Numbered from the stretch's first letter, positions 30,738-50,740 are shown. The stretch: DNA of 64,000 nucleotides from Collinsella aerofaciens (GCF_963360655.1 NZ_OY725717.1:372001-436000), one strand, 5' to 3'. A program made the numbers and translations. The notes: generated by a model not told the origin, from the letters alone.

Positions 30738-30796
30738 TGTGTCAATCTGTAACAGATGCAGGGCAAAACCGGGTCCAAATGTTATAGAACAAGACA
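30738..30796. repeat. Family A 59-nt hairpin, single degenerate copy
   Basis: TGTGTCAATCTGTAACA and the diverged partner TGTTATAGAACAAGACA enclose 25 nt. The total is again 59 nt. It lies in the 500-nt gap between the divergent helicase and FHA genes, where nothing else is recognisable. Confidence 0.75.
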
Positions 30797-30974
30797 GAGG
30801 GGGATTTCCGTTCAGTCCAACCAAAATCTCTCGGTCTTCCTGCAATTTCGAACATGTGGCCTATAATGTTGCTTTGGTTACGCTATATATTGCGCAGCCA
30901 TTTAATACGTCGCCCACCGGGGGCCATTAATTCCTATCGCCATATTGGCTAGGAAGCAATCAAAGGAGGTATCC

Positions 30975-31937
30975 GTGGCAGCAGAGACGCCTTGCTCGGT
31001 CCTCTATAACGATATTCGCTCGTTCGGCGGTCTTAAACATCTCGAGATCGCCCGAATGCTCATCAATGGAAACTCTTATCTCGGCAGTACCCTGCTCGAG
31101 AAATGCTCTTCCAACCGCTCGTATCTCACCCGTTACATCGTCCATCGCAAGCCTGACCAGTGCGCGCCCTCCATCTACAGCGACTTTACCGTCACCACGC
31201 TCAACCTTTCCTCGGCAATCTGCAGCAAGCTCGGCGGCGGCGAGTCCGCCTATCGGGCAATCGCCGAGCACTATCGCGGTCCGGCCGCCAACGAAATGAT
31301 GTCGGCTCTCGCCAGCTACAAGCTGGACAGCCGCCTATATGCAAATGCCCTCAATCGCATCGACAACTTTGACGGCAATGCCGTGCGCGAGAAAAGCACG
31401 CTTTACCTTATGCTCTTTGTGGCAACGGGGGCGCTCGCCGATCCCGTTCAGGGCGTGACCACCGTCGAGCGCTTTTGCGCCAGCAAGACGGGCGGGCACT
31501 TTGGCACCACCGAAACTACCGTCGGACGCGGCTTTATGAGCAGCCTGGAGCAGCCGCACACCGTCGCTCCCAACCTCGGTCTGCTCAGAACCCATGCCGA
31601 CAACTGCGCCGACATGCAAATCCATCCCCTCACACGCGATCCGCGCGGCACCGTGATTGGTTCTTTGCCCAAAACCTCGCCCAGCATCACCGATGTAGGC
31701 GCCGACGCCTCGCGCGAGCATCTTCGCATTTGGCTCGAGGGTGAGCACTGGTACGCCCAGGGCCTTGGATCGACCAACGGCACAGTGCTCGAATCGGGCG
31801 CGGGCGACGGCGATATTGTGATTGAGCCGCCGCGCGACCAACGCGAACCCGGCAAAGTCTATCCCCCCGTGGAAATCGCCAACAGCGACAGGCTCCATCT
31901 GGGTCTCTACACGACATTCCTTGTCATTGTGGACTAG
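30975..31937 (+). CDS. FHA domain protein
   Basis: The 320-residue protein has an N-terminal 200 residues that I do not recognise (helical, starting AAETPCSVLYNDIRSFGGLKH) and a C-terminal FHA domain at about 225-320. The phosphothreonine-binding residues are visible in SREHLRIW and GLGSTNGT. GTG 30975 was chosen because a near-perfect AAAGGAGGT site lies just upstream. The next gene, 170 nt downstream on the same strand, is a Ser/Thr kinase, so this protein is a likely substrate or reader of that kinase. Confidence 0.85.
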   Translation: MAAETPCSVLYNDIRSFGGLKHLEIARMLINGNSYLGSTLLEKCSSNRSYLTRYIVHRKPDQCAPSIYSDFTVTTLNLSSAICSKLGGGESAYRAIAEHYRGPAANEMMSALASYKLDSRLYANALNRIDNFDGNAVREKSTLYLMLFVATGALADPVQGVTTVERFCASKTGGHFGTTETTVGRGFMSSLEQPHTVAPNLGLLRTHADNCADMQIHPLTRDPRGTVIGSLPKTSPSITDVGADASREHLRIWLEGEHWYAQGLGSTNGTVLESGAGDGDIVIEPPRDQREPGKVYPPVEIANSDRLHLGLYTTFLVIVD

Positions 31938-31938
31938 C

Positions 31939-31985
31939 ACGGACAGCGATCGGAAGACGGTCGCCGTCCGTCTTTCGTCTTCTAC
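31939..31985 (+). terminator. Terminator between the FHA and kinase genes
   Basis: Stem ACGGACAGCGA / TCGCCGTCCGT followed by CTTTCGTCTTCT. The kinase gene may therefore have its own promoter. Confidence 0.65.
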
Positions 31986-32108
31986 CTTCTGTGTCGTAAA
32001 CGACAATGCTCAGCGGTATACGTGGGCAGTGCGGCTATCATGGTACTTTACCGATATCCGCACTGCTCGCGTAAACGTGCGGCAACCCATGCCAGACAAA
32101 GGAACGCC

Positions 32109-34193
32109 ATGGATACTACCGATAGCGCCTATGGCGACAAACTCGTCCGTCTCGATACGTTCGATACCGCCGTGGCGGTCGACCCCAGCGCCGAGGACGA
32201 CGCCAAGCGTCGGTTTATGACGCTTATTCTCCAGACGGCCCACCGCAACAACGGCAACATCGGGCACGTGCTGCGCGCGACCAACACGAGCGGCGAGGTC
32301 TTTGCCGTCAAGCTACTCAAGGACAATGCCATCCTTTCCGGCCAAGCCCCCGACCGCTCCGCCGAGCAAGCGGCTGCGCACCTGGCCAATACCGCCGCGC
32401 TGTTCGAGGAGTACCGTCATCTGTGCACTGTCTCGCACCTGCGCGGATTTCCGCGCGTCTATGGCTATGGATCGTGCGAGGACGACCCGCTCATCCTCAT
32501 GGAGTGGGTCGAGGGCACCTCGCTCAAGCAGGCGCTGCCCTTGCTTCCGCACGATGCCTCGGGCGGGCTAACCACCCAGATGGTGGCCGCCGTTGGAAAC
32601 GCCGTGCTTCGCGCACTCCTGATGACCCAGGGACTCGTAAATCCGGTCGTCCATCGCGACCTGTCGCCCGCCAATATCATGTTCCGTACCACCAGTCGAA
32701 CGCTCGAGCAGCAGATCGTCGATTGCTCCTTTGACCCCTGCCTCATCGACATGGGCTCCGCGACCATGGCCCTCGGCGATGACACGATCACCCGGCGCGC
32801 CGACATCTGGCGCTTTGCCACGCCCGCATACGCCGCGCCCGAGATGCTCACGCAGGATATCGAAGGCATCGCGGCCCTTCGCCGCTCGCCCGCAATCGAT
32901 GTCTACGCGCTTTCGAGCATTCTGTACCAGCTCTACAGCGGTCGCAAACCGTTCGATGTGGAGTCGACGGGTGCCGCGGCAACCGGTTCGTTCTACCTCA
33001 TAAAGACCAAGACCAAGCCGGCGCCGCTCGAGCCGCGATGCAGTGACGACGAGGCGCTCGTCCAAATCATCATGAAAGGCATCTCAGTCGAGCAGCGTGA
33101 TCGTCCCACCGAACAGCAGATGCTCGAGGTGCTCTCGGCATACCTCACCGATGCCGAATCCGAGGGCCGCGAGGGCGCGGGCAGTGACACCGCAATTGAC
33201 ATCGACTCCGGTACGCACCTTAAGGTCGACGTCGCCGGCGAGCGCGCGAGAGAGATCCTGGAGCAGGCCCGGCACGATGCCATGACCCGCCGCCGCTTTA
33301 TTATCGGTGGCGTTGTCGCAGCCGTTGCGGGGCTAGGCGTTATCGGGGCGGCAACCCATGGCTTTGGCATCCCCGACTACCTGGACGGCATCCGCAGTTC
33401 ACTTGACGACTACACTTGGGATCAGCTGCAGGAGATTTCGCTCAAGATTAAGGCCACCGAGACCCGTAGCGAGGCACGCGAGATTGCCAGGCGCTATCAT
33501 CTGCTCGATGCCGATGGGCATATCCCCTATCCGTGTACCAAGCGTGTCACGCTCACCAACGGGCTGCAGGTTGGCGCGCAGCTTGTGGGCATCCGCCACG
33601 ATGAGCTTCTGGACGGGACGGGCAAGGCCGGACTAACGTTTATGTTCGACGCGGGTATTGCCGAGCGCAACGCTGCGGCTGAACCGCCGAGCGCCGGCTG
33701 GGCAGATTGCGAGCTGCGGGAATGGCTCAACGGCGACGGCCTTAAGCTGCTGCCCAACGAGTTGCGCGCACTCATTAAAGGGGTCAAGAAGGTCTCGAAC
33801 AATGTGGGCGCCGCCAACAGCGCATCGTGCCTGAGCGAGTTGCCCGCAACCCTTTGGCTGCCCGCCATGGTCGAGCTGTGCGGTACGCAACCGCCCGATT
33901 CGTTTACCGAGGGCTATCACTACCTGGCAGACATCTACAACGGCGAGGGCAGGGAGTATCAGCTCTTCCGCGAGCTCAAGGTGAGCCCGTATTCCACGAA
34001 CGAGACGATGGTCCGCCAGTGGAAGGGCAAGGACACCTGTTGGTGGGAGCGCACGGTGAGCCCCGACACATCGGAGAGCGAAGGCACGCTCTATATGAAC
34101 CGCGTGGGGCACGACGGCGACGTCTTTACGTACGCAACGCCTGCGGAAAAGCCAAGCAAGCTAACCTGTGTGATCCCCGGGTTCTGTATCTAG
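32109..34193 (+). CDS. Membrane Ser/Thr protein kinase with DUF6273-like extracellular domain
   Basis: The 694-residue protein has a kinase domain at about 45-370: Lys68 (EVFAVKLLK), catalytic loop HRDLSPANI (182-190), the magnesium motif as DMG (214-216) rather than DFG, and AAPEM (242-246). A single membrane helix lies at about 396-415 (FIIGGVVAAVAGLGVIGAA). The outer part, about 416-694, contains a region like DUF6273 (WADCELREWLNGDGLKLLP, TLWLPAMVEL) instead of PASTA repeats. ATG 32109 has an AAAGGAA site. Pairing with the upstream FHA gene suggests a phospho-signalling module. Its signal is unknown. Confidence 0.85.
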   Translation: MDTTDSAYGDKLVRLDTFDTAVAVDPSAEDDAKRRFMTLILQTAHRNNGNIGHVLRATNTSGEVFAVKLLKDNAILSGQAPDRSAEQAAAHLANTAALFEEYRHLCTVSHLRGFPRVYGYGSCEDDPLILMEWVEGTSLKQALPLLPHDASGGLTTQMVAAVGNAVLRALLMTQGLVNPVVHRDLSPANIMFRTTSRTLEQQIVDCSFDPCLIDMGSATMALGDDTITRRADIWRFATPAYAAPEMLTQDIEGIAALRRSPAIDVYALSSILYQLYSGRKPFDVESTGAAATGSFYLIKTKTKPAPLEPRCSDDEALVQIIMKGISVEQRDRPTEQQMLEVLSAYLTDAESEGREGAGSDTAIDIDSGTHLKVDVAGERAREILEQARHDAMTRRRFIIGGVVAAVAGLGVIGAATHGFGIPDYLDGIRSSLDDYTWDQLQEISLKIKATETRSEAREIARRYHLLDADGHIPYPCTKRVTLTNGLQVGAQLVGIRHDELLDGTGKAGLTFMFDAGIAERNAAAEPPSAGWADCELREWLNGDGLKLLPNELRALIKGVKKVSNNVGAANSASCLSELPATLWLPAMVELCGTQPPDSFTEGYHYLADIYNGEGREYQLFRELKVSPYSTNETMVRQWKGKDTCWWERTVSPDTSESEGTLYMNRVGHDGDVFTYATPAEKPSKLTCVIPGFCI

Positions 34194-34234
34194 GCGGCGG
34201 GCGTCTTGCCGTGACGGGACCCCTCCCCGGCAAT

Positions 34235-34454
34235 TGTCTCGATCTGTAACAGTAAGGGGTCAAAAACCTCTCTAGATGTTACAAATCAAGACATTTGAGT
34301 TGACCGCGGACGGTTTGTCTCGATCTGTAACATCTAGCAGGAAAAACGGTCCTTAGGCGTTACAGGTTGAGACGTTAAGTTGTGGCTCGATGTAATGTCT
34401 CGATCTGTAACAGTTACTCGACAAAAACGGGTCTAGTTGTTACAGATTGAGACA
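34235..34454. repeat. Family A array of three 59-nt hairpins
   Basis: Units at 34235-34293, 34316-34374 and 34396-34454 are each exactly 59 nt, with gaps of 22 and 21 nt. Each has 17-nt arms of the type TGTCTCGATCTGTAACA and the complement TGTTACAGATCGAGACA around 25 nt with an A5 or T5 centre. The array lies between the kinase stop and the copA promoter. Confidence 0.92.
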
Positions 34455-34528
34455 TTAGACCGGCTACGGTCCGCCGACCTGGCTATCACCTCGACCAATA
34501 CCAGAATGTCATACATTTCAATCTCCAC

Positions 34529-34559
34529 TGGACACCACCAGGGGGTATGGGTGTATAGT
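34529..34559 (+). promoter_or_regulatory. Predicted copA promoter with CsoR-type operator
   Basis: -35 TGGACA (34529-34534) and -10 TGTATA (34552-34557) have a 17-nt spacer that contains GGGGGTAT, the half-site typical of CsoR operators. CsoR bound here would block RNA polymerase; copper would release it. The other operator half is poor. Confidence 0.5.
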
Positions 34560-34606
34560 ATCGGATGGTTAACATTTCCGACACTACGCCACAGAAAGGA
34601 GAAGCC

Positions 34607-36949
34607 ATGGCTCAAGATAAGTTCGATGTGGGCGGCATGACGTGCGCCGCCTGCCAGGCGCACGTGGACCGTGCCGTGAGCAAGCTCGACGGCGTCCAAA
34701 GCGTCGCGGTCAACCTGCTCGCCGGCTCCATGCTGGTCGACTACGACCCCGCGCAGGTCTCCCCCGACGACATCTGTACCGCCGTCGATCGCGCGGGTTA
34801 TTCGGCCTCGCCCGTTAGCACGGGCACCGATGCCGCCAACTCAAACGGCAACGCGCAAGCCAGGTCCGGCGCCGCCCATATGGAGTCGCCGACCAAAAAG
34901 TTGGAGGCCGCCGCCTCTGCCATGCGCACCCGCCTCATCATCTCGATCATCTTCCTCATCCCACTGTTCTACATAGGCATGGGGCACATGCTCGGTTGGC
35001 CACTGCCCGGCGTCTTCACCGACCACACCCACAGCATGACGCTCGCGCTCACCGAGCTCGTCCTGCTCATTCCCATCGTCTACGTCAACGACGCATACTT
35101 TATCAACGGGTTTAAATCGCTTACGCACGGCGCGCCTACCATGGACGCCCTTATTGCCGTGGGCGCCACCGCGTCCATCGCCTGGTCGCTCTACGCCATG
35201 TTCATCATGGCCGACCAGCTAGCCGCGGGTCAGGTCCACGAGGCCATGATGACGAGCATGGACAACCTGTATTTTGAGAGCGCCGGCACGATCTTGTCGC
35301 TCGTCACCGTAGGCAAATATCTCGAGACACGCAGCAAATCCAAGACTGGCGGCGCCATCGAGGCGCTCATTGACCTGGCGCCCAAGACCGCGACCGTCGT
35401 GGCCGTCGACGGTACCGAGACCACCGTCGATGTCGATGCCATTCTGCCCGGCCAGGTGCTGCGTGTGCGCCCCGGCGAGTCCATCCCTGTCGACGGCGTG
35501 GTACTCGAGGGCGCTTCGGCCGTGGACGAAAGCGCACTGACCGGCGAGTCCATCCCCGTGGAGAAGACCGCCGGCGCCACCGTCAACGCCGCCACCGTCA
35601 ACCGCACCGGATCGTTTACCTTCCGCGCTACGCGTGTGGGCGCTGACACGTCGCTCGCCAAGATTATCCAGCTCGTCGAGGACGCCAACGCCACCAAGGC
35701 ACCCATTGCTCGACTGGCCGACAAGGTCGCCGGCGTGTTCGTGCCTGTGGTATTCGTGATCTCGGCCGTGACCTTTGTGGTGTGGATGGCACTGACCAGC
35801 GACGTGAATGAGGCGCTCACCTCCGCCGTCGCTGTGCTGGCGATCAGCTGCCCGTGCGCGCTGGGCCTGGCCACGCCCGTCGCCATTATGGTCGGCACCG
35901 GCAAGGGCGCCGAGATGGGCATTCTGTTTAAGAGCGCCGAGGCGCTGGAGAACCTGCGCAGCGTGGGCACCGTGGTGCTCGATAAGACGGGCACGGTCAC
36001 CCGCGGCAAGCCTGCCGTGACCGATATCGTGGTAGCCACGCGCGCTGACGGCTCGCCCGCCATGAGCGAAAAGGCGCTGCTCAAGTTGGCCGCCGCGTTG
36101 GAGCGCTCGAGCGAGCACCCGCTGGCCGAGGCGATTATGGCCGAGTGTGAGACACGCGGGATCGTCGCGCGCATGGTCGAGGACTTTACTGCCGTGCCCG
36201 GGCGAGGCGTTACGGCACGCGAGGGGCAAAACGCCATTGCCGCCGGCAATATGCGCCTGATGGACGAGTTGGGCGTTACCGTGCCCGCGGGTCTTGCCGA
36301 GCAATTTGCCGTCGAAGGCAAGACGCCGCTGTTCTTTGCCAAGAACGGCGAGCTTGCTGGCACCATTGCCGTGGCTGACGAGGTCAAGGAGACGAGCGCC
36401 GGGGCCATCGCCGCACTGCGCTCGCTTGGCGTCGACGTGCGCATGCTCACCGGCGACAACCGCGTGACGGCCGAGGCCATCGCCCGCCGCGTGGGGCTGA
36501 GCAGCGAACAGGTCATCGCCGACGTCCTCCCCGCCGACAAGGAACGCCACGTGCGCGAACTGCAGGATGCGGGCGGCAAGGTCGCCATGGTGGGCGACGG
36601 CATCAATGACTCCCCCGCCCTGGCGCGCGCCGACGTGGGCCTTGCCATCGGCACCGGCGCCGACATCGCCAAAGAAGGGGCAGATGTGGTGCTCATGCGC
36701 AGCGACCTCATGGACGTCGCCCGCGCCATCGAGCTTTCGCGCGCCACGATCCGCAACATCAAGCAGGACCTGTTCTGGGCACTGTTCTACAACGGCATCG
36801 GCATTCCGCTGGCGGCGGGCGTGTTCTTCCCGCTCACCGGATGGCAACTCTCGCCGATGTTTGGCGCCGCGGCCATGAGCCTGTCGAGCGTGTGCGTCGT
36901 GTCCAATGCCCTGCGTTTGAAATCCTTTAAGCCTAAAGTGGCAAAATAG
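34607..36949 (+). CDS. copA: Copper-exporting P1B-type ATPase
   Basis: CopA pumps Cu(I) out across the membrane. The 780-residue protein has one N-terminal HMA domain ([11 protein letters not shown], Cys13/Cys16), eight predicted helices, the transmembrane CPC metal site ([12 protein letters not shown], about 414), the phosphorylation motif DKTGTVTRG (about 458), the HP motif SEHPLAEA, and [16 protein letters not shown]. The C-terminal helices have YNGIG and [15 protein letters not shown], as in Cu(I) pumps. ATG 34607 follows AAAGGAG. With the copZ-like and csoR genes downstream it forms a copper-resistance module. Confidence 0.95.
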
Positions 36950-37096
36950 GCTCACCATTAAGTCCATTTAGAACGGGTTTTCCAAGTGCCCGAGATTGAC
37001 CTGAAAGAGGAGCGACGCGTACTTTGGTACGCGAGCGACGGTTTGAAGGTCAAGGTCGGGTGCCTGGGAAAGCCGACACAACAGAGAGGAATACCC

Positions 37097-37318
37097 ATGC
37101 GTTTCACAATTAAGACTTCCGGCCTTATGTGCGGCCACTGCGACGCCACCGTCGAGACCGCGCTGCTCAACGTTGCGGGCGTAACCGACGCCGACGCCGA
37201 CCACGAGACTCAGACCGTCCAGGTGGAGTGCGCCGACACCGTAACCGCCGAGCAACTCGCCGCCGCTGTCGAGGCCGCGGGCGAGAAATTCCACGCCCTG
37301 TCTGTGACCGCCGCGTAG
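37097..37318 (+). CDS. copZ: Copper chaperone-like HMA domain protein
   Basis: This 73-residue protein is a single heavy-metal-associated domain with the metal-binding loop GLMCGHCDATVE (Cys12/Cys15). It probably shuttles Cu(I) to CopA. The MxCxHC form of the loop is slightly different from the MxCxxC of most CopZ proteins. It starts at ATG 37097 behind AGAGAGGA. The 147-nt gap after copA holds a small hairpin (CGCGTAC / GTACGCG, 37016-37033). Confidence 0.85.
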   Translation: MRFTIKTSGLMCGHCDATVETALLNVAGVTDADADHETQTVQVECADTVTAEQLAAAVEAAGEKFHALSVTAA

Positions 37319-37393
37319 CAGCTGCCGCACCAACAGGCACCACTGCCGGCTGACATAGCCGCTCAGCAACCGCCACTCAACCAACCCTTCAGA

Positions 37394-37460
37394 AGTTGCG
37401 GTGAAATAGTTCCTGTTTTAGCGCTTCAAGCCTGCAAACAAGAACTATTTCACCGCAACT
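37394..37460. repeat. Family B 67-nt palindrome, intact
   Basis: Arms AGTTGCGGTGAAATAG and CTATTTCACCGCAACT, then a further inner stem TTCCTGTTT / AAACAAGAA. Compared with the other copies the inner stem has changed on both sides, so pairing is kept (with one G-U type mismatch). It separates the copZ-like gene and csoR. Confidence 0.9.
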
Positions 37461-37502
37461 GACGGGGGCATCCGGAAGATCGACCAGAAACGAGGACCCG
37501 AC

Positions 37503-37775
37503 ATGATGGCAGACCATAAATCGGTGACCCGCATGCTCAAGACGGCACGCGGTCAGATCGACGGCATCCTGCGGATGGTCGAGGAGGACCGCTACTGCGT
37601 CGATATCTCCACGCAGCTCATGGCCACACAGGCGCTCCTCGCGCGCATTAACGCCGACGTGCTCAAGGCGCATATCGAGGGCTGCGTGACTTCGGCAATC
37701 GAATCGGGCGACGAAGACCTCAAAGCCGCCAAACTCGCCGAAATCGAACGCGTCGTCGACAAACTCTCCAAGTAA
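37503..37775 (+). CDS. csoR: Copper-sensing repressor CsoR family
   Basis: This 90-residue all-helical DUF156 protein has the Cu(I) site residues in the expected places: Cys32 (RYCVDIS), His57 and Cys61 (KAHIEGC). Apo-CsoR binds DNA as a tetramer and copper releases it. It lies downstream of copA and the chaperone gene, and a CsoR-type half-site is in the copA promoter spacer. The start is one of two adjacent ATGs at 37503/37506. Confidence 0.92.
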   Translation: MMADHKSVTRMLKTARGQIDGILRMVEEDRYCVDISTQLMATQALLARINADVLKAHIEGCVTSAIESGDEDLKAAKLAEIERVVDKLSK

Positions 37776-37785
37776 TTGGGGCATT

Positions 37786-37866
37786 GGGGACAGGTACGTT
37801 TGCACCGTCTTGGTATTCCGGGGACAGGTATGTTTGCACCACATTGGTGCAGATTAACCTGTCCCC
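37786..37866. repeat. Family E repeat cluster
   Basis: Two direct copies of a 21-nt motif (GGGGACAGGT.CGTTTGCACC type) lie at 37786-37806 and 37820-37840. An inverted relative (GGTGCAG..TAACCTGTCCCC) lies at 37846-37866. The second and third copies can form a hairpin after the csoR stop. Confidence 0.75.
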
Positions 37867-37921
37867 CTTGCTCTAAATCGGGTATAAAGGCGTGCAGCAT
37901 ATCGAACGAAAGGCAATTTGC

Positions 37922-38395
37922 ATGAATGACTTTATGAAGGGTCGCAATGGTGCCGATGAACTCACCATCGTGATGGGTTTTGCCGGCATCGTCATCGCGA
38001 TGATCGGATCGATAGCCCGCATCCAGTGGCTCAGCTGGATTGCCATCGCCGTAATCGTGATTGGCGTGCTGCGCGGCCTGTCCAAAAATATCGACGCACG
38101 TCACAACGAGAACGAGGCCTTTGTCGCCGCGACTGCAAACGTCCCCTGCCTGGGCAAATTCGTCGCCAGCTTGGGCGGCGGAACCGCAGCGGCCAGCACC
38201 TCACGCGCGGCCGGCACCAGTAAGGAAGACTTTGAGCGTGCCAAGCGCACGGCCAAGAAGATGTGGAAGGGCCGCAAGACCACGGCCTATCTCAAGTGCC
38301 CCAACTGCGGCCAGATGCTCTCCGTCCCCAAGGGCAAGGGCAAGATCCGCGTCACCTGCCCCAAGTGCCACGCCAAGATGGAGACGCGCTCCTAG
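37922..38395 (+). CDS. Small membrane protein with C-terminal zinc ribbon
   Basis: I do not recognise a named family. The 157-residue protein has two membrane helices at about 15-33 and 36-52 (ELTIVMGFAGIVIAMIGSIA, then WLSWIAIAVIVIGVL). A flexible Ala/Ser/Thr-rich middle follows. The C-terminal zinc ribbon has two CPxC knuckles (LKCPNCGQML and VTCPKCHAKM, about 124-155). It starts at ATG 37922 with a GAAAGG site and ends before a strong terminator. The topology suggests a cytoplasmic zinc ribbon anchored to the membrane. Confidence 0.75.
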   Translation: MNDFMKGRNGADELTIVMGFAGIVIAMIGSIARIQWLSWIAIAVIVIGVLRGLSKNIDARHNENEAFVAATANVPCLGKFVASLGGGTAAASTSRAAGTSKEDFERAKRTAKKMWKGRKTTAYLKCPNCGQMLSVPKGKGKIRVTCPKCHAKMETRS

Positions 38396-38416
38396 CCGCC
38401 ATACCATAGGACAAAT

Positions 38417-38453: not shown

Positions 38454-38485
38454 TATGCGACAACGGAGCTGTCCCTTTGTCACAC

Positions 38486-40004: not shown

Positions 40005-40144
40005 TGTCTCGATCTGTAACAGGTACAGGGTTATTGGGCCCCTTGATGTTACAGATCGAGACATTCGGTCAACGTTTCACCGGCTTGTCTCGATCTGTAA
40101 CAATTACGAGCTCAAATAACCTCTAAACGTTACAGATTGAGACA
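40005..40144. repeat. Family A array of two 59-nt hairpins
   Basis: Units 40005-40063 and 40086-40144 with a 22-nt gap. Arms are TGTCTCGATCTGTAACA and TGTTACAGATCGAGACA, with a C/G to T/G change in the second unit. The array ends 7 nt before the stop of the next minus-strand gene. Confidence 0.92.
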
Positions 40145-40151
40145 AAACCTC

Positions 40152-41228
40152 TCAGCGCCCATACCACTGACGTCTCCACTCCTCAGCCAAATCGGGCCGT
40201 CGCGGAATACCCGCCAGCCTCATCTTCTCAACCAGCTTCCCCGGATTCTTGAGCTCATCAAACGTAAACCGAAGCACCTTGTGCCCGAGCATTGTCAGAT
40301 GGGACTCCCGTTGACGTTCTGCCACGAATGGGTCGACCGACTCCCGGCCCTCGCCGTTCTGCAAGGTGTACTTCACCTTTCCGTCGAGCTCGCCGATGAC
40401 ACACGTCCCGTCCTCGAGCTGCCAAAAATAGTCGACGCGAAATACCTGGCTCGGATCGAGCGGGTCGCGAAACTCCACCTGCAGCTCCGGAACCGGAAAG
40501 TCGTACGCAATAAAGAACGCTCGGAACCGAGACTCGCCGCCGTTTTCGGACAGCCCGTCCGCATACGACGCAATCACCTGTGCTCTGCGATGCCCGTGCT
40601 TGCCTTCACAATCTATACGAAGCCGCTCACAAAAGTCATCGCGCGATACGCCTTTCGCCCGCAGTGCAGAATCGGCAATCGCCAATCCGTAGGAGAACGG
40701 CGCACGCAGCAAGCAATCCTCCACCGTGCGCCAAAACGACGTCACCTGCACGCCGTCGACTTGTTCAAGTACACCCGCCGCCTGCGGACGCAACAGCCGA
40801 CACCCTGCACTCAGCGGCACCGAGCAACCCGTCTTAACAAGATATCGTGGCCCAAGCAGATCATTCGGCACCTCCAAACCCCACAAAAGCGCCGCGTCAT
40901 AGCCCCAAAACGCCCAATCGGGATGAAATTCCGCAAGCCCTTTGATAGTCCTCAGTGCTCGCTCCGTCAGCGTCAATGCATCCCAATCATGCTTAAAACA
41001 GAACAGGTACGGCTCGGGCTCCGCAATATCGTCGGTTCCAACATGGCGTCGCAACCACATGAGCTCGGTATTGTCATGCGTTGCGAGCAGCGTACCTTGC
41101 TCGGTCGCCTCCGTGAGCCGCGCGAGCATCCTGTTCCGCGCCAACGTGTTGCGAGTCGCATGTTTGTGTTTGAGAACGGTATTAGACACTTTCATCACCA
41201 CCACGTCAGACAAATGGACCATCGTCAC
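40152..41228 (-). CDS. AbiEi-like/DUF559-type protein with PD-(D/E)XK fold
   Basis: The protein is about 358 residues. The N-terminal 170 residues resemble the AbiEi antitoxin/transcriptional regulator domain seen in many actinobacterial proteins. The C-terminal part looks like a DUF559 endonuclease-like domain with Asp in VFRVDYFW and the E-x-D-x-K group in VIGELDGKVKY (about 285-296). Such proteins are common and poorly characterised. GTG 41228 follows GGAGG by 5 nt; ATG 41222 is possible. Family A hairpin arrays lie 7 nt beyond its stop and about 20 nt before its start. Confidence 0.7.
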   Translation of the reverse strand: MTMVHLSDVVVMKVSNTVLKHKHATRNTLARNRMLARLTEATEQGTLLATHDNTELMWLRRHVGTDDIAEPEPYLFCFKHDWDALTLTERALRTIKGLAEFHPDWAFWGYDAALLWGLEVPNDLLGPRYLVKTGCSVPLSAGCRLLRPQAAGVLEQVDGVQVTSFWRTVEDCLLRAPFSYGLAIADSALRAKGVSRDDFCERLRIDCEGKHGHRRAQVIASYADGLSENGGESRFRAFFIAYDFPVPELQVEFRDPLDPSQVFRVDYFWQLEDGTCVIGELDGKVKYTLQNGEGRESVDPFVAERQRESHLTMLGHKVLRFTFDELKNPGKLVEKMRLAGIPRRPDLAEEWRRQWYGR

Positions 41229-41247
41229 CGTTGCCTCCGCTGACAAA

Positions 41248-41547
41248 TGTCTTGATCTGTAACAGGAAGACCGATTTTTGGCCGCTAGATGTTACAGATC
41301 GAGATCTTTCGACACCGCGTCCAACCTTTGTCTCAATTTGTAACAGGTAGGTCGAGTTTTGGCCTGTAGATGTTACAGATTGAGACATTCCCCCAACCAG
41401 GTGCCAAACGTCTCGATCTGTAACAGTTAGACGTTCTCCAGGGCCCTAAACGTTACAGATTTAGACAAATCAGCAGCGCCCAAGCATTCGTCTCGATCTG
41501 TAACAGGTAGACCGGTTTTTTGTCCCTAAACGTTACAGATCGAGACA
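41248..41547. repeat. Family A array of four 59-nt hairpins
   Basis: Units at 41248-41306, 41329-41387, 41409-41467 and 41489-41547, with gaps of 22, 21 and 21 nt. This is the longest array in the window. Loops follow a loose GGTAGACC...TTTTT...CTARA pattern that extends the stem inward; the gap sequences are unrelated to each other. Confidence 0.93.
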
Positions 41548-42674: not shown

Positions 42675-42705
42675 GCCCTTGACGATTCAGCTGTGGACAG
42701 CCGCC

Positions 42706-44187
<1,482 letters not shown>

Positions 44188-44192
44188 GGCAC

Positions 44193-47100
44193 TTACGCCT
44201 CCTTTTTGGTCGAAGCAACAGAGCTGGCGGTGGTGGGCGCAGCGCCAGCGACACCACCCGCCACATCAAAGCGAGCGACATCGGCGGCGTCGGCGCGACC
44301 GGTCACAATGTCAAACGCCAGCTCCTCGGCCTGCGCATGCGTCTTACCGATGGCCTCGGCGGCGGCGACAATCGCCAACACGCGCTCGTACTCGGTCGGA
44401 ATGACCTTCACAAAGTGCTTGCTCATCGAGTCGAAGCTGTAGAGCAGCTTAATGCCGCGCGGGCTCTGCGTCGCGTCCACGTGCTCCTGGATGAGCTCGC
44501 GAATCTGCGCCAGCTCGCCGGCCGTCGGGGCCTTGAGCTCCACGCTCTCGTGGTTCACGCGAGCACTGAGCGTGCCGTACTGATCAAAGACATAGGCCAC
44601 GCCGCCTGTCATGCCGGCGGCAAAATTCTGCCCGACTTCGCCCAAGATGAGCGCCAGACCTCCCGTCATGTACTCGCAGCCATGGTTGCCGCAGCCTTCG
44701 ACCACCACCGTGGCACCGGAGTTGCGCACGGCGAAACGCTGGCCGGCAAGGCCGTTAATAAAGCCGCGACCGCTCGTGGCGCCAAAGAACGCAACGTTGC
44801 CCACGATGATGTTCTCGTCGAACTTGTAGGTCGCATGCGGGTTGGGGCGCACCGATACCTCGCCGCCCGAAAGGCCCTTGCCAAAGTAGTCGTTGGCGTC
44901 GCCGCACACGTTGAGCGTAATGCCGCGCGGCAGGAAAGCGCCAAAGCTCTGACCGGCCGAACCATCGCAATCGATGGTGATGGAGCCGGCGGGCAGACCC
45001 TCGGGATGCGCCTTGGTCACCGCGTTGCCCAAGATGGTGCCCACGCAGCGGTTGACGTTGGCGATGTCGGCGCGAAAGCGAATCGGACGCAGGTGCGCAC
45101 GGGCATCGGCCGTATAGGGCACAAACAACGTGGAGTCGAGCGTCTTGTCAAGCTCGCTGTCGGCAGCCATCTGGGGCAGGAAGTGACGGCCGTCGGCACC
45201 CGGGATGTGGGCACCAAACTCACAGGTCGCGCTCGCCAGCACGGGCGACAGATCCAGCAGGTTGGCCTTGCGGTTGTCCGGGACCTCGATCTGGCGCAAG
45301 CACTCGGGATGGCCGACCATCTCATCGATGGTGCGGAAGCCCAGGCTCGCCATGACCTCGCGCAACTGCTCGGCAACAAAGAGCATAAAGCGCTCGACGT
45401 GCTCGGGCTTGCCGCGGAAGCCGCGACGCAGGCGGCAGTTTTGCGTAGCGATGCCGGCCGGGCAGGTATCCTGCTGGCAGTCGCGCTGCATGAGGCAGCC
45501 CATGGAGATGAGCGGCATGGTCGCAAAGCCAAACTCCTCGGCACCCAGCAGGCAGGCGACGGCGACGTCGGTGCCGTCCATGAGCTTGCCATCGGCCTCG
45601 AGCACCACGCGTGAGCGCAGGCCGTTTTGCAGCAGCGTCTGCTGGGCCTCGGCAAGGCCAAGCTCCAGCGGCAGACCGGCGTGCCAGATCGAATCGCGCG
45701 CCGCAGCACCGGAGCCGCCGTTGTGGCCGCTGATCAAGATCTTGTCGGCGGCACCCTTGGCCACACCGGTGGCGATGGTGCCGACGCCGGCCTCGCTGAC
45801 CAGCTTGACCGACACGCGTGCGCCGGGGTTGGCGTTCTTAAGATCGAAGATAAGCTCCGCCAGGTCCTCGATGGAGTAGATGTCGTGGTGCGGCGGAGGC
45901 GAGATCAGGCCGATGCCGGGCGTGGACTGACGGACCTCGGCGATCCAGGGGTAGACCTTCTTGCCGGGCAGGTGGCCGCCCTCGCCGGGCTTGGCGCCCT
46001 GGGCCATCTTGATCTGAATCTCAAAGGCGCTGCACAGGTAGCGGCTCGTCACGCCAAAGCGCGCGCTTGCCACCTGCTTGATGGCGGAATTCTTGGAGTC
46101 ACCGTTAGCCAGCGGGGTCTCGCGGCGCGGATCCTCGCAGCCCTCGCCCGAGTTGGAACGGCCGTGCAGGCGGTTCATGGCGATGGCCATGCACTCGTGT
46201 GCTTCCTTGCTGATGGAACCGTACGACATGGCGCCGGTGTTAAAGCGGCGAACGATGTTGAGCGCGGGCTCGACCTCGTCGAGTGCCACCGGGGTGCGGC
46301 CGCCGGCATCAAAGTCCAGCAGGTCGCGCAGGCGCACGGCACGGCCGGTGCGGTGCAGGCGGGCGCTGTACTCCTTAAAGGTGTCGTAGCTGTCCTCACG
46401 GCAGGCGGTCCGCAGCAAGTAGACAGTCTGCGGATCGATGAGGTGATCCTCGCCGCCGAGCGGGCGCCACTTGGTCAGACCCAACGTGGGCAGCTGATCG
46501 GGAGCCGGGCTCTTAAGGATAGCGAGCGCGGCGTCGTAGCGCTCATTCTGCTCGCGCTCGACGTCCTCGACACCCATACCGCCCACACGGCTCACCGTGC
46601 CGGCGAAGTACGCGTTGACAAACTCCAGCGTAAAGCCCACGGCCTCGAAGATCTGCGCGGAGTGGTAGCTCTGCACCGTGGAGATGCCCATCTTGGACAT
46701 GATGGAGACGATGCCGGCGGTCGCAGCCTTGTTGTAGTTGGCGATGCCCTGCTCGGCTGTCACGTCCAGATCGCCGTGCGCCGCCAAGTCGCGAATGCAC
46801 GCATGCGCGTTGTACGGATAGATGCCGCTCGCGGAGTAGCCCACCAGCGCCGCAAAGTCGTGCGGGGACACGGCGTCGCCACACTCCACCACGATGTCGG
46901 CAAAGGTACGCACGCCGGCACGGATCAGGTGGTTGTGCACACAGCCCACGGCGAGCAGCGACGGCACGGGCACCTCGCCCGCAGCGGCACGGTCGCTCAG
47001 CACCACGATGTTCACGCCATCGCGAACCGCAGCCTCGACGTCTTCGGCAAGCTGCTTGAGCGCAGCCTGCAGCGCGCCCTCGCCGGCATCGCGGCGGTAG

Positions 47101-48890
47101 ACGGCACGGAAACGGCGGGTCTTAAAGCCCACGCGGTCGATGGCGCAAATGCGGTCGAACTCCTCCTCGCTCAGCAGTGGGCGCTCCAGGCGAACCAGCT
47201 GGCAGGCCGTACGAGAGTCCTCGAGCAGGTTGCCGTGGTTGCCCAGGTAGAGCGTGGTCGAGGTGACCATATGCTCGCGAAGGGCGTCGATGGGCGGGTT
47301 CGTGACCTGGGCGAACAGCTGATAGAAGTAGTCAAAGAACGAGCGCGTCTTCTTGGACAGGCAGGCCAGCGGCGCATCGATACCCATCGAGGCGAGCGGC
47401 GCCTTGCCCTGCTGGGCCATGGGACGCACGACTTCGTCAACATCATCCCAGTGATACCCGAGCTTGGCCATGCGCACGGCGGCGGGCACCTCGGTATCCT
47501 CGGCGGGCGTGGGCGCGACGGGCTTGTCGAGCGCGTCGACGGTCAGCGTCTCCTCGGCGATCCAGTCGCGATAGGGCTTTTCCTTGGCGTAACGAGCGCG
47601 CAGCTCGTCGTTGTAGATCACGCGGCCGCGGGCAAAGTCGACCTCGAGCATCTGGCCCGGCCCCAGACAGCCGCTCGTCAGGATGTTCTCGGGGCTCACC
47701 TCGATGGTGCCCACCTCACTCGCCAACATAAAGCGGCCGTCGCGCGTCACGTAATAGCGAGCCGGGCGCAGGCCGTTACGGTCGAGGGCGGCACCCAGGG
47801 TACGGCCGTCGGTAAAGGCGATAGCGGCAGGACCGTCCCACGGCTCCATGAGCATGGACTGGTAAGCGTCGTAGGCGCGGCACTCCTCACTCAGGCTGTC
47901 GTTGTGGTCCCACGGCTCGGGCAGCAACATGGACGCGGCACGCGTGAGCGGGCGACCGTTCATGACCAGGAACTCAAGCACATTGTCCAGAATCGCGGAG
48001 TCGGAGCCCTCGCGGTTGATGATGGGCATCACGCGCTCAAGATCATGCTGCAGCACGGGGCTGTACAGGTTGGGCTCGCGGGCGCGGATCCAGTTGACGT
48101 TGCCCTTGAGGGTGTTGATCTCGCCGTTGTGGATGATAAAGCGGTTGGGGTGCGCGCGTTCCCAGCTGGGCGTGGTGTTGGTGGAGTAGCGCGAGTGGAC
48201 GAGCGCCACGGCCGTCTTGACGGCGGCGTCGTTGAGATCGATGAAGAAGCGGCGCATCTGCGTGGCGACCAGCATGCCCTTGTACACGATGGTGCGCGAG
48301 CTCATGGAGCATACATAGAAGATTTTGTCGCGCAGGGCAAACTCAGCGTCGGCCTTCTTCTCGATAGTGCGGCGGCACACGTACAGGCGGCGCTCGAAGG
48401 CATCGCCGGCGGGCGTGTCGTCCGGACGGCCCAGGAAGGCCTGCAGGATAGTGGGCATACAGGCGTGGGCCGTCTCGCCCAGGTCGTGCGGGTCAACCGG
48501 CACCTCGCGCCAAAAGAGCAGCGGCACGCCGGCCTCGGCGCAGCCCTCCTCAAACACGCGGCGGGCATCCTCTACGCCCTTCTCGTCCTGCGGGAAGAAC
48601 AGCATGGCCACGCCATAGTCGCCCTCTGCCGGCAGAATCTGGCCACACTTTTGAGCCTCTTTACGGAAAAAGTGATGCGGAACCTGGAACAGGATGCCGG
48701 CGCCGTCGCCGGTGTTCTTCTCGAGTCCCGTGCCGCCGCGGTGCTCCAAGTTGACCAGAATGGACAGTGCGTCGTCCAGGATCTGGTGATGGCGCTCGCC
48801 GTTGATATCGGCAAGCGCGCCGATGCCGCATGCATCGTGGTCGAATTCGGGGCGATAAAGGCCCTGCTGCTGAGCGGAATCTGCCTGCAT
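44193..48890 (-). CDS. gltB: Glutamate synthase large subunit
   Basis: The 1,565-residue protein makes glutamate from glutamine and 2-oxoglutarate. The class II glutaminase domain would begin at Cys21 after removal of a short propeptide (DACGIGALADI). The FMN-binding synthase barrel follows at about 850-1230 (GEGGHLPGKKVYPWIAEVR), with the 3Fe-4S cysteines in GCLMQRDCQQDTCPAGIATQ. The C-terminal GXGXG domain ends the protein. ATG 48890 follows GGGAGG. The promoter should lie in the 520-nt gap shared with the Nramp gene. Confidence 0.97.
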   Translation of the reverse strand: MQADSAQQQGLYRPEFDHDACGIGALADINGERHHQILDDALSILVNLEHRGGTGLEKNTGDGAGILFQVPHHFFRKEAQKCGQILPAEGDYGVAMLFFPQDEKGVEDARRVFEEGCAEAGVPLLFWREVPVDPHDLGETAHACMPTILQAFLGRPDDTPAGDAFERRLYVCRRTIEKKADAEFALRDKIFYVCSMSSRTIVYKGMLVATQMRRFFIDLNDAAVKTAVALVHSRYSTNTTPSWERAHPNRFIIHNGEINTLKGNVNWIRAREPNLYSPVLQHDLERVMPIINREGSDSAILDNVLEFLVMNGRPLTRAASMLLPEPWDHNDSLSEECRAYDAYQSMLMEPWDGPAAIAFTDGRTLGAALDRNGLRPARYYVTRDGRFMLASEVGTIEVSPENILTSGCLGPGQMLEVDFARGRVIYNDELRARYAKEKPYRDWIAEETLTVDALDKPVAPTPAEDTEVPAAVRMAKLGYHWDDVDEVVRPMAQQGKAPLASMGIDAPLACLSKKTRSFFDYFYQLFAQVTNPPIDALREHMVTSTTLYLGNHGNLLEDSRTACQLVRLERPLLSEEEFDRICAIDRVGFKTRRFRAVYRRDAGEGALQAALKQLAEDVEAAVRDGVNIVVLSDRAAAGEVPVPSLLAVGCVHNHLIRAGVRTFADIVVECGDAVSPHDFAALVGYSASGIYPYNAHACIRDLAAHGDLDVTAEQGIANYNKAATAGIVSIMSKMGISTVQSYHSAQIFEAVGFTLEFVNAYFAGTVSRVGGMGVEDVEREQNERYDAALAILKSPAPDQLPTLGLTKWRPLGGEDHLIDPQTVYLLRTACREDSYDTFKEYSARLHRTGRAVRLRDLLDFDAGGRTPVALDEVEPALNIVRRFNTGAMSYGSISKEAHECMAIAMNRLHGRSNSGEGCEDPRRETPLANGDSKNSAIKQVASARFGVTSRYLCSAFEIQIKMAQGAKPGEGGHLPGKKVYPWIAEVRQSTPGIGLISPPPHHDIYSIEDLAELIFDLKNANPGARVSVKLVSEAGVGTIATGVAKGAADKILISGHNGGSGAAARDSIWHAGLPLELGLAEAQQTLLQNGLRSRVVLEADGKLMDGTDVAVACLLGAEEFGFATMPLISMGCLMQRDCQQDTCPAGIATQNCRLRRGFRGKPEHVERFMLFVAEQLREVMASLGFRTIDEMVGHPECLRQIEVPDNRKANLLDLSPVLASATCEFGAHIPGADGRHFLPQMAADSELDKTLDSTLFVPYTADARAHLRPIRFRADIANVNRCVGTILGNAVTKAHPEGLPAGSITIDCDGSAGQSFGAFLPRGITLNVCGDANDYFGKGLSGGEVSVRPNPHATYKFDENIIVGNVAFFGATSGRGFINGLAGQRFAVRNSGATVVVEGCGNHGCEYMTGGLALILGEVGQNFAAGMTGGVAYVFDQYGTLSARVNHESVELKAPTAGELAQIRELIQEHVDATQSPRGIKLLYSFDSMSKHFVKVIPTEYERVLAIVAAAEAIGKTHAQAEELAFDIVTGRADAADVARFDVAGGVAGAAPTTASSVASTKKEA

Positions 48891-49072
48891 CGCGATCCTC
48901 CCCTAGATATTAGACAGTCAGTTGAATAGGCATACTAGGAGCACCGCCGGCCCGTTGTGTTTCCCACCCGTTTCGAAACAATCGCGTAACGCACGCCCTA
49001 CGAGTGGACACCGCCGACCTCGAGGGCGACAACATAGGCCCCAAGTTCGGCCTGTAAGCTCACCGCTTCAAA

Positions 49073-49291
49073 CATCTCAATCTGTAACAGTAAGACCCAA
49101 TTTCGACGACTAACTGTTACAGATTGAGATGTTTTCGAGAGACGGTTCCGAATGTCTCAATCTGTAACACGAAGGGTCAGTTTTGGCGGTCAGCTGTTAC
49201 AGATCGAGATTTTCCATAGGACCATTTCTTCCTGTCTTGATCTGTAACACCTAGACCCAATTTCCATCCCCAGTTGTTACAGATCAAGACA
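49073..49291. repeat. Family A array of three 59-nt hairpins
   Basis: Units 49073-49131, 49153-49211 and 49233-49291, both gaps 21 nt. The outer two have paired substitutions: CATCTCAATC.. with ..GATTGAGATG in the first, and TGTCTTGATC.. with ..GATCAAGACA in the third. The array sits between the divergent gltB and mntH genes. Confidence 0.93.
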
Positions 49292-49336
49292 TTTCGGCAA
49301 CCCCCTTTCCCCACCCCATTCAAATACAACTATTTT

Positions 49337-49376
49337 GTTAGTCATAGTTAACTTTTGAGCCTAAAACGGGTATCCT
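49337..49376 (+). promoter_or_regulatory. Possible mntH promoter and metal-repressor operator
   Basis: -35 TTAACT (49348-49353) and -10 TATCCT (49371-49376) are 17 nt apart. The dyad GTTAGTCATAGTTAAC (49337-49352) overlaps the -35 box and is of the general DtxR/MntR type. The operator is inference. Confidence 0.4.
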
Positions 49377-49412
49377 TTGCGGCGTCAAACAAACGGCACG
49401 CAGGAGCGCACC

Positions 49413-50669
49413 ATGCTCAACCATCTCAAACAACACTTTGGCTCGCACCGCACCGGCGGTCACGGAGGCCTAGACATTGCGCGGAATATCGGCCCCGGGC
49501 TGCTCGTGACCGTCGGCTTTATCGACCCGGGCAACTGGGCCTCCAATATGGCCGCGGGCTCGCAGTTTGGCTACGCGCTGCTGTGGATCGTCACGCTGTC
49601 CACGATTATGCTGATCGTCTTGCAGCACAACGCGGCGCACCTGGGCATCGCCACGGGCGCCTGTCTTGCCGAGGCCACGACACGTTACCTCCCCCGCTTC
49701 GTTGGACGCACGGTGCTCGCCAGTGCCTATCTCGCGACCATCGCCACCGCCATGGCCGAAGTCTTGGGTGGCGCGATTGCCCTTCAAATGCTCTTTGGGC
49801 TGCCCGTACGTGCGGGCTGCGTCATCGTGGCGGCAGTATCGATGGCGATGCTCATGACGAGTTCCTACAAGCGTGCCGAACGCTGGATCATCGCCCTCGT
49901 AGGCGTGGTAGGACTCTCGTTTTTGGCCGAGCTTGCACTAGTCAAGGTCGACTGGCCGCAAGCCGCCGCAAGCTGGATCACGCCCAGTATGCCCACTGGC
50001 TCTGCCGCGATTATCGTGAGTGTCCTGGGTGCGGTCGTTATGCCCCACAACCTCTTTCTACACTCCGAGGTCATCCAATCCATGCACTTCGAAGGCCAAG
50101 GCGAGCAGGTTATCGAAGAGCGTCTGCGCTATGAGCTCTTCGACACGCTCTTTTCGATGGGCGTGGGCTGGGCAATCAACTCGGCCATGGTCATCCTGGC
50201 CGCAACGACCTTCTTTGCGCACAGCATTGTCGTAGACGACCTCGCCGTCGCAGCGGCCACGCTCTCCCCCATCTTGGGCCCGGCGAGCTCGACCATCTTT
50301 GCGGTAGCGCTGCTGTTCGCGGGACTATCGAGCAGCGTGACAGCGGGCATGGCGGCGGGAACCATCACCGCGGGCATGTTCGACGAGGAATACGACATCC
50401 ACGACCGACATTCCTCGATCGGGGTAGCGGCCTGTTTCGCCGGCGCAGTGGCGGCGTGTCTGGTCATCCCAAATCCTTTTGAAGGTCTCATCTGGAGTCA
50501 GGCACTGCTGTCGCTTCAGCTGCCGATTACGGTCTTTGTGCTCATACGGCTCACCAGCTCAGCCCGCGTTATGGGCAAATACGCCAACTCGCGCCCGCTC
50601 AACGCGCTGCTCGTAGGGATCGGCGTCATCGTGACGATTCTCGACATCGTGCTGCTAACGGGGATGTAA
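49413..50669 (+). CDS. mntH: Nramp family divalent metal transporter
   Basis: The 418-residue protein imports Mn(II) or Fe(II) with protons. It has eleven or so helices and both metal-binding motifs: DPGN in helix 1 (residues 38-41, GFIDPGNWAS) and MPHN in helix 6 (VVMPHNLFLHS). ATG 49413 has a CAGGAGCG site. It is divergent from gltB and is followed by a truncated family A hairpin and an IS200 element. Confidence 0.93.
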   Translation: MLNHLKQHFGSHRTGGHGGLDIARNIGPGLLVTVGFIDPGNWASNMAAGSQFGYALLWIVTLSTIMLIVLQHNAAHLGIATGACLAEATTRYLPRFVGRTVLASAYLATIATAMAEVLGGAIALQMLFGLPVRAGCVIVAAVSMAMLMTSSYKRAERWIIALVGVVGLSFLAELALVKVDWPQAAASWITPSMPTGSAAIIVSVLGAVVMPHNLFLHSEVIQSMHFEGQGEQVIEERLRYELFDTLFSMGVGWAINSAMVILAATTFFAHSIVVDDLAVAAATLSPILGPASSTIFAVALLFAGLSSSVTAGMAAGTITAGMFDEEYDIHDRHSSIGVAACFAGAVAACLVIPNPFEGLIWSQALLSLQLPITVFVLIRLTSSARVMGKYANSRPLNALLVGIGVIVTILDIVLLTGM

Positions 50670-50697
50670 TTGGGATGGCGTGACTGTCCAGATATAA

Positions 50698-50740
50698 CGT
50701 CTTAATCTGTAACACGTGAGACCGTTTTAAACCGTCAGAT
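50698..50740. repeat. Family A hairpin cut by the IS200 element
   Basis: CGTCTTAATCTGTAACA plus a 25-nt loop and one base of the second arm are present. The sequence then becomes the IS200 left end. The missing 16 nt of the second arm is not found beyond the right end. Confidence 0.75.

What the first reader, a model, noticed from the sequence alone, without database searches (positions are those of the whole stretch)
30738..50740. Family A: 59-nt hairpins in regular arrays with an 80-81 nt period
I count 14 copies at six sites: 30738; 34235, 34316, 34396; 40005, 40086; 41248, 41329, 41409, 41489; 49073, 49153, 49233; and a cut copy at 50698. All 13 full copies are exactly 59 nt: 17-nt arm, 25 nt, 17-nt arm. 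In arrays the starts are always 80 or 81 nt apart, with 21-22 nt gaps of unrelated sequence, about two DNA turns. Arms change together in some copies (49073 and 49233), so the folded form, not just the sequence, seems to be maintained. The T5/A5 centre appears in either orientation. This rules out simple decay of one duplication. It resembles REP/BIME elements in concept but the fixed period is unusual. A replicating element moved by a Y1 transposase, a nucleoid or topoisomerase site, or an arrayed structured RNA are all possible.
Basis: partly seen in the sequence, partly recalled or inferred. Interest (0 to 1): 0.85.

Follow-up and report, generated by a model that had tools for sequence, protein, structure and literature searches.

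The report
Phased repeats bracketing a nuclease gene
These gut-bacterium DNA repeats behave like rigidly spaced double-stranded protein-binding sites rather than hairpins, and they tightly bracket a gene for a predicted DNA-binding nuclease whose relatives are often bracketed by their own different repeats, which points to an undescribed nuclease-and-repeat partnership.

Summary
The geometry is real. The genome holds 44 arm pairs at 20 intergenic sites: 43 are exactly 59 nt, and arrays repeat at 79-81 nt. Across about 25 C. aerofaciens-group genomes, 426 of 431 units are 59 nt. The hairpin reading fails: variable positions in the two arms change independently (1122 Watson-Crick pairs versus 1116 expected), while the same test detects correlated arms in another repeat of this genome. 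Between strains, arms evolve slowly; the 25-bp centre changes freely in sequence but almost never in length (2 indels per 2300 substitutions; flanks 585 per 7985). That is how an inverted pair of roughly 24-bp double-stranded protein sites behaves.

The window gene at 40152-41246 is bracketed by arrays in 17 of 17 genomes where this can be seen. Its product is modelled as an AbiEi-like DNA-binding part fused to a homing-endonuclease-type nuclease. AbiEi-type proteins are known to bind paired 23-bp inverted repeats. Eight of 14 family genes tested are bracketed by matching repeats of their own (cross-pair control 0 of 180). So family A is probably the recognition unit of this nuclease family: REP/RAYT-like in logic, but not REP. 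Binding, cleavage and benefit to the cell are untested.

The parts
30738..30796 (.). Family A unit, single (59 nt), between the DEAD-helicase and FHA genes
34235..34454 (.). Array of 3 units (starts 34235, 34316, 34396)
40005..40144 (.). Array of 2 units (starts 40005, 40086) on the 3' side of the AbiEi-nuclease gene
40152..41246 (-). Bracketed gene, up to 364 aa (true start codon uncertain): AbiEi-like N-terminal part (residues 35-230) plus homing-endonuclease/Vsr-type nuclease domain (residues 235-348); weak DUF559
41248..41547 (.). Array of 4 units on the 5' side of the AbiEi-nuclease gene (starts 41248, 41329, 41409, 41489)
49073..49291 (.). Array of 3 units (starts 49073, 49153, 49233) between gltB and the Nramp gene; present with 1-3 units in all 22 repeat-positive genomes
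50698..50740 (.). Cut unit (one intact arm plus part of the centre); intact arrays of 2-4 units lie here in other strains
50952..51308 (-). Y1 transposase domain of an IS200-type element (167 aa frame), one of four identical-scoring copies in this genome, next to the cut unit
   Evidence: G000:C6:422952-423308

Best explanation
Family A units are double-stranded DNA recognition sites. Each unit is an inverted pair of about 24-bp non-palindromic half-sites (WWTGTCTCRATCTGTAACANNTAG) with centres 42 bp apart (four turns at 10.5 bp per turn), so both halves sit on one face of the helix. The centre carries 10-bp-phased A/T patches and has a fixed length, and units repeat at 80-81 bp. The most likely reader is the family of AbiEi-type DNA-binding proteins fused to a homing-endonuclease/Vsr-type nuclease, one of which is encoded between two of the arrays. 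Proposed working: two protein copies bind the two half-sites of a unit, bending or looping the centre, as AbiEi does on its own operator; occupied units stack along an array; nicking or cutting near units then promotes recombination and gene conversion between them, which would explain copy-number changes in whole units, occasional spread of two-unit modules, and gain or loss of the bracketed gene. Shown here: geometry, independence of the arms, slow arms with fixed lengths, bracketing by own repeats across the protein family, and the predicted folds. Inferred: binding, bending, cleavage, the homing-like spread, and any benefit to the cell.
For: (1) No arm covariation: 1122 Watson-Crick pairs versus 1115.6 expected over 79 divergent units; A.C is as common as G.T at variable pairs. 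Family B shows correlated arms under the same test, total z 5.3. (2) Orthologous arrays: arms 0.032 and 0.038 substitutions per site, centre 0.130, spacer 0.128, flanks 0.084; indels per substitution 0.0009 in the centre and 0.0135 in spacers against 0.073 in flanks. (3) The bracketed gene has arrays on both sides in 17 of 17 genomes where both flanks are on the contig; close orthologs occur in 19 of 22 repeat-positive and 0 of 21 repeat-negative genomes. (4) The fold model (mean pLDDT 84.9) matches S. agalactiae AbiEi over residues 35-230 (Z 8.9, rmsd 6.7) and the I-Bth0305I catalytic domain over 235-348 (Z 10.4, rmsd 2.8). (5) AbiEi and Rv2827c bind pairs of 23-bp inverted repeats as monomers; Rv2827c's operator is two pairs in tandem (13-bp gaps inside a pair, 4 bp between), and AbiEi bends DNA (PMC7319586). 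(6) Eight of 14 family genes share a flanking repeat between their two sides (score at least 30) versus a maximum of 15 in 180 cross pairs. The own paralog C1:246348 sits between two family B units, the paralog C1:910224 between two units of a third, 64-nt family; G019's gene sits between 2 of 8 units of an 86-87 nt family found only in G019, and G041's between two 50-nt units. (7) Copies outside the group are irregular: a 54-nt unit and a broken unit in G028, core substitutions in G015 and G037.
Against: The gene is absent in three repeat-rich genomes (G001, G004, G005) and broken in G023, and their unit numbers are not clearly lower (40, 42, 48, 53 versus 38-67; p 0.19), so it cannot be strictly required unless paralogs stand in or the losses are recent. 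For family B, genomes without the paralog do have fewer exact arms (p 0.014), but phylogeny is not controlled. Six of 14 paralogs show no shared repeat on both sides. Other single genes, such as a Fic gene, are also bracketed. No clean insertion with an empty site or target duplication was found. Intrinsic curvature of the centre is not above shuffled controls. The AbiEi match has a high rmsd. No binding or cleavage data exist.
Confidence: 0.6

Rival explanations
1. Chromosome-organising or general regulatory sites: the units are bound by an unidentified host protein (nucleoid-associated, occlusion-type or transcriptional) and kept because they benefit the cell; the bracketed nuclease gene is a passenger.
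For: About 20 intergenic sites next to functionally unrelated genes, mostly kept at orthologous positions between strains, slow arms and fixed lengths, no decayed relics in the genome; arrays persist in genomes without the bracketed gene.
Against: Positions are not significantly biased towards the origin or away from the terminus (p 0.12 and 0.22). Gene contexts are mixed (convergent, divergent, tandem), so no regulon logic. It does not explain why relatives of the bracketed gene have their own repeats on both sides, nor the restriction to one species group.
Confidence: 0.22
2. MITE-like elements: 59-bp units are minimal transposon ends moved by a DDE or other transposase.
For: Strict unit length, inverted ends, dispersal of two-unit modules, presence/absence differences between strains.
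Against: No target duplications and no clean empty site; outermost bases weakly conserved; a fixed 21-22 nt spacer between units is not expected from repeated insertion; no decayed copies; positions largely conserved between strains.
Confidence: 0.08
3. REP/BIME hairpins mobilised by a Y1 (RAYT) transposase.
For: Extragenic, arrayed, inverted symmetry; a RAYT-like gene is present in the genome.
Against: Arms do not covary; inter-unit length is fixed; the RAYT-like gene is not flanked by family A or B; Y1 genes are also present in most repeat-negative genomes.
Confidence: 0.04
4. Arrayed structured RNAs or terminator-like hairpins acting after transcription.
For: Long inverted arms can fold; several sites lie 40-110 nt after stop codons.
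Against: No Rfam match, no covariation, A.C mismatches as frequent as G.T, several sites between divergent genes, centre length fixed while centre pairing is not kept.
Confidence: 0.04

Closest known systems
REP/BIME elements with RAYT transposases (REP-rayt-REP)
   Same: Dispersed extragenic inverted repeats, often in regular arrays of alternating orientation; a cognate gene bracketed by two copies of the repeat; each family has its own sequence (PMC2817692).
   Different: Complementary changes keep the palindrome in REPs, not here; inter-REP segments vary substantially in length in Stenotrophomonas BIMEs, fixed at 21-22 nt here; the bracketed protein is an AbiEi-nuclease, not a Y1 transposase; no GTAG foot.
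AbiEi / Rv2827c antitoxin operators
   Same: Pairs of about 23-bp inverted repeats with fixed gaps, two pairs in tandem for Rv2827c, bound by monomers (PMC7319586).
   Different: Those are single promoters of a toxin-antitoxin operon; here tens of copies lie genome-wide, a copy also lies at the gene's 3' side, and the protein carries a nuclease domain.
Free-standing homing endonucleases (I-Bth0305I)
   Same: C-terminal catalytic domain of the same predicted fold (Z 10.4); sequence-specific DNA binding inferred; selfish spread would fit.
   Different: The gene is bracketed by whole recognition units instead of interrupting one; recognition units are multi-copy and arrayed.
BOX elements of Streptococcus pneumoniae
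   Same: Modular intergenic repeats with variable numbers of internal units between strains (PMC3049150).
   Different: BOX is described as stem-loop-forming, with terminal repeats and target duplications; family A shows neither covariation nor duplications.

Membership tests
REP/BIME (RAYT-associated) | Complementary mutations preserve the palindrome | tested here: not met
   arm pairs 1122 vs 1115.6 expected by shuffling; criterion from PMC2817692
REP/BIME (RAYT-associated) | Y1 transposase gene flanked by two inverted copies of the repeat | tested here: not met
   the RAYT-like gene C6:221450 has no family B unit nearby; no strong family A half-site between C6:1 and C6:402738
REP/BIME (RAYT-associated) | GTAG/GTGG tetranucleotide at the foot of the palindrome | tested here: not met
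   outer flank is WW-T-R-T-C-T-C, no conserved GTAG outside the arm
AbiEi-type operator | Paired inverted repeats of about 23 bp with a fixed gap | tested here: met
   24-bp conserved half-site (-1 to 22, 32.6 bits), 15-bp gap; comparison values in PMC7319586
AbiEi-type operator | Bound by the product of the adjacent gene | not testable with these tools
   needs EMSA or ChIP
AbiEi-type proteins | N-terminal DNA-binding part with AbiEi fold | tested here: inconclusive
   6y8q Z 8.9 but rmsd 6.7 over 178 residues, 1zel (Rv2827c) Z 5.3; Foldseek E 0.057
Homing-endonuclease/Vsr-type nuclease | Catalytic domain fold and conserved acidic/basic residues | tested here: met
   3r3p Z 10.4, rmsd 2.8, 93 residues; invariant E238, D272, E286, D288, K292 in 15 family members
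Homing-endonuclease/Vsr-type nuclease | Cleaves its recognition site and spreads by gene conversion | not tested
   presence/absence at one locus (L141 has one 2-unit array and no gene) is compatible, not proof
MITE | Target-site duplication at insertion | tested here: inconclusive
   two loci filled/empty between strains, neither a clean insertion, no duplication seen
Structured RNA | Covariation of paired positions | tested here: not met
Structured RNA | Match to a described RNA family | tested here: not met
   only two tRNAs at Rfam gathering thresholds

The most novel reading that the evidence does not exclude
A previously undescribed class of nuclease-repeat partnership. Genes for AbiEi-type DNA-binding nucleases are each bracketed by two copies of their own fixed-length double-stranded dyad, and the nuclease disperses or maintains that dyad at tens of intergenic sites. 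This would be the counterpart of REP/RAYT built on duplex recognition and a homing-type nuclease. C. aerofaciens carries at least three such pairs (families A, B and a 64-nt family).
Probability: 0.5. Interest if true: 0.9.

Novelty: new variant of a known kind. Interest (0 to 1): 0.8.

Why it matters
It would explain a set of conspicuous intergenic repeats in one of the commonest human gut bacteria and offer a testable role for AbiEi/DUF559-type nuclease proteins, a family with many paralogs in this genus and no role found in the papers searched. It would also show that the logic 'gene bracketed by its own dispersed repeat', known from REP/RAYT, arose with duplex recognition and a nuclease. 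The fixed 25-bp centre and 80-bp period make clear, cheap predictions for binding and structure work.

Tried and rejected
Hairpin/RNA reading: rejected by absence of covariation, with family B as evidence that the test has power. Y1/RAYT as mover: rejected. Intrinsically bent centre: no excess curvature in two dinucleotide models, only 10-bp phasing of A/T. Origin/terminus patterning as in nucleoid-occlusion sites: not significant. HU/IHF as clade-specific partner: no PF00216 match in any of 43 Collinsella genomes, so no contrast. Viral hits: the only one with array spacing (L167) maps to host DNA flanking a conserved site. Nramp gene as a gained or lost array cassette: rejected, another gene is inserted upstream of it in some strains and Nramp remains. 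PADLOC and NCBIfam gave no name for the bracketed protein; plasmid and phage searches gave one weak match each, not followed. Papers: no paper in the held library contains both 'DUF559' and 'inverted repeat'; no description of this repeat was found.

Full report
What was checked. In the whole genome (2.32 Mb, window = C6:372001-436000) there are 86 matches against 1 control. They form 44 pairs at 20 sites; 43 pairs are 59 nt and one is 58 nt, and neighbours start 79-81 nt apart. A half-site matrix scanned over 2.27 Mb of this genome gives 90 half-sites of at least 22 bits and nothing between 14 and 22 bits, so there are almost no decayed relics; two half-sites stand alone (C6:422698 and C6:770035).

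Distribution. An exact-spacing pattern for the unit over 395 genomes of the order finds 26-67 units in 22 genomes of this genus, one unit in each of three other genomes of the genus, two in an incomplete assembly of another family, and none elsewhere; the reversed-pattern control is zero. Named hits are nearly all Collinsella aerofaciens or Collinsella sp.. The 22 positives are the genomes 96-98% identical at gltB; the relatives that matched there at all are 74-83% identical. Unit lengths over about 25 genomes are 58:2, 59:426, 60:3 (the same list also shows lengths 27, 106 and 107, which I read as overlapping or cross-unit pairings). Distinct spacer lengths are 19:1, 20:5, 21:114, 22:80.

Not a hairpin. 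If folding were maintained, changes in one arm should be matched in the other. Over 79 divergent units the number of Watson-Crick pairs in the arms is 1122 against 1115.6 expected when partners are shuffled; A.C is more frequent than G.T at the two most variable pairs. The same test on family B, another fixed-length palindrome (67 nt, 42 copies) of this genome, gives a total z of 5.3 with strong correlation at positions 12 and 16-19, so the method can detect matched arms. Rfam has no match.

What is conserved. In orthologous arrays of different strains the arms change at 0.032 and 0.038 per site, the centre at 0.130, the spacer at 0.128 and the flanking 100 bp at 0.084. Indels per substitution are 585/7985 in flanks, 2/2300 in the centre and 16/1183 in spacers. 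Pairs of strains are not independent and detection needs a near-normal unit, so these are effect sizes, not P values; the contrast for the centre is about eighty-fold. Sequence-free but length-fixed DNA between conserved inverted motifs is the expected behaviour of a double-stranded protein site. The conserved half-site spans positions -1 to 22 (24 bp, 32.6 bits, WWTGTCTCRATCTGTAACANNTAG). Half-site centres lie 42 bp apart within a unit and 38-39 bp across the spacer. The centre shows 10-bp phasing of A/T well above shuffled sequence, but no excess of predicted intrinsic curvature.

How arrays change. At gltB-Nramp all 22 positive genomes have 1 to 3 units, differing by whole 80- or 160-nt steps, with mosaic alleles. 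Most sites are shared between strains, with 1 to 8 units. Three two-unit arrays at distant sites share their spacer or centres, so modules of about 139 bp have spread. Two sites empty here but filled elsewhere show no clean insertion and no target duplication; one of them is flanked by copies of another repeat. Neighbouring genes are functionally unrelated and arrays lie in convergent, divergent and tandem gaps. Outside the species group the few copies are irregular: a 54-nt unit and a broken one in G028, and core substitutions in G015 and G037, where the single unit sits upstream of a clpB region that matches this genome at 92-94% and so looks transferred.

The bracketed gene. The window gene at 40152-41246 (minus strand) is separated by about 10 bp from the array at its 3' side and by 1 bp, counted from the aligned start, at its 5' side. 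All 17 genomes in which both flanks lie on the contig have arrays on both sides. Close orthologs (84% or more) are in 19 of 22 positive genomes and none of the 21 negatives; G001, G004 and G005 lack it and G023 has it broken. One strain has a single two-unit array and no gene at this place (L141). Pfam gives only a sub-threshold DUF559 match. The model (mean pLDDT 84.9) matches the AbiEi antitoxin over residues 35-230 (Z 8.9, rmsd 6.7) and the catalytic domain of homing endonuclease I-Bth0305I over 235-348 (Z 10.4, rmsd 2.8). Invariant E238, D272, E286, D288 and K292 fit a nuclease of that type. AbiEi and Rv2827c are known to bind pairs of 23-bp inverted repeats as monomers; Rv2827c's operator has two pairs in tandem, and AbiEi bends its operator (PMC7319586). 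The family A unit has the same kind of anatomy.

The rule across the family. For 14 members of this protein family in several Collinsella genomes (two of them orthologs of each other), the two flanks were compared with each other. Eight share a repeat (local score 30-63); the best of 180 cross pairs scores 15. The repeats differ from gene to gene and are inverted repeats. In this genome all three members found by HMM search are bracketed: P0001 by family A, C1:246348 by family B, C1:910224 by a 64-nt family with 8 units. In G001 the family B paralog also lies between two family B units. In G019 the repeat has 8 units of 86-87 nt, two of them bracketing the gene, and is absent from the other genomes except for scattered hits at two or three mismatches. 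In G041 the repeat has several units of 50 nt, two bracketing the gene; G035 carries the repeat and has a unit next to its gene as well. Exact family B arms are fewer in genomes lacking that paralog (medians about 35 and 64, p 0.014, phylogeny not controlled); for family A there is no significant difference (p 0.19). Other genes are bracketed too, including a Fic-like gene, so bracketing is not exclusive to the nucleases, but all three nucleases of this genome have it.

Interpretation. The best-supported reading is that family A is the recognition unit of the AbiEi-nuclease family, kept and perhaps dispersed by it. The partnership resembles REP/RAYT in layout, yet the criteria of REP that could be tested (complementary changes, Y1 gene bracketed, GTAG foot) are not met. 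How arms stay intact in genomes without the gene, whether units help the cell, and whether the nuclease cuts at units are open.

Noticed in passing
window about 37395-37461 and 52436-52502; genome-wide 42 units: Family B palindrome (AGTTGCGGTGAAATA, 67 nt, fixed length, not arrayed): positions 16-19 vary as a matched 4-bp code (GGGA, GTTC, CGGT, CAGA) in the two arms, as if there were recognition subtypes.
   Followed up: partly
C1:246348-247316 (minus) and C1:910224-911174 (minus) of G000: Two further AbiEi-nuclease paralogs, bracketed by family B and by a 64-nt GAGCGTGGATAATCTCC family.
   Followed up: partly
C1:1043116-1044621 of G000: A Fic-like gene (my reading of the motif HPFLDGNGRLGR) lies between two units of the 64-nt repeat that also brackets the C1:910224 nuclease gene; possible cargo.
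   Followed up: no
all 43 Collinsella genomes: No HU/IHF (PF00216) match in any genome, although PMC5683647 lists Coriobacteriia as having HU; either lost in this genus or missed by the search.
   Followed up: no
C1:1121650-1121980 and C1:1013650-1013980 of G000: Another palindrome family ACCACCACAAAGG..CCTTTGTGGTGGT (35 nt, 31 copies of that length); copies flank a family A array present in another strain and missing here.
   Followed up: partly
L341 and L343 (G015, G037): The region at and upstream of clpB matches this genome at 92-94% although gltB matches at 76-80%: likely recent transfer carrying one family A unit.
   Followed up: partly
gltB-Nramp gap, L195, L197, L201, L202, L204, L207, L208: A phosphoglycerate-mutase-like gene (my reading of the sequence) is inserted between the shared upstream region and the Nramp gene in 7 of 22 genomes.
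   Followed up: partly
window 1694-1789, 18855-18884, 25221-25276, 63795-63829: Another short inverted repeat (GGGGACGGAGGAAAA-like) in the window, not studied.
   Followed up: no
L133, L147: A unit fusion by exact deletion between neighbouring units leaves a normal hybrid unit.
   Followed up: no
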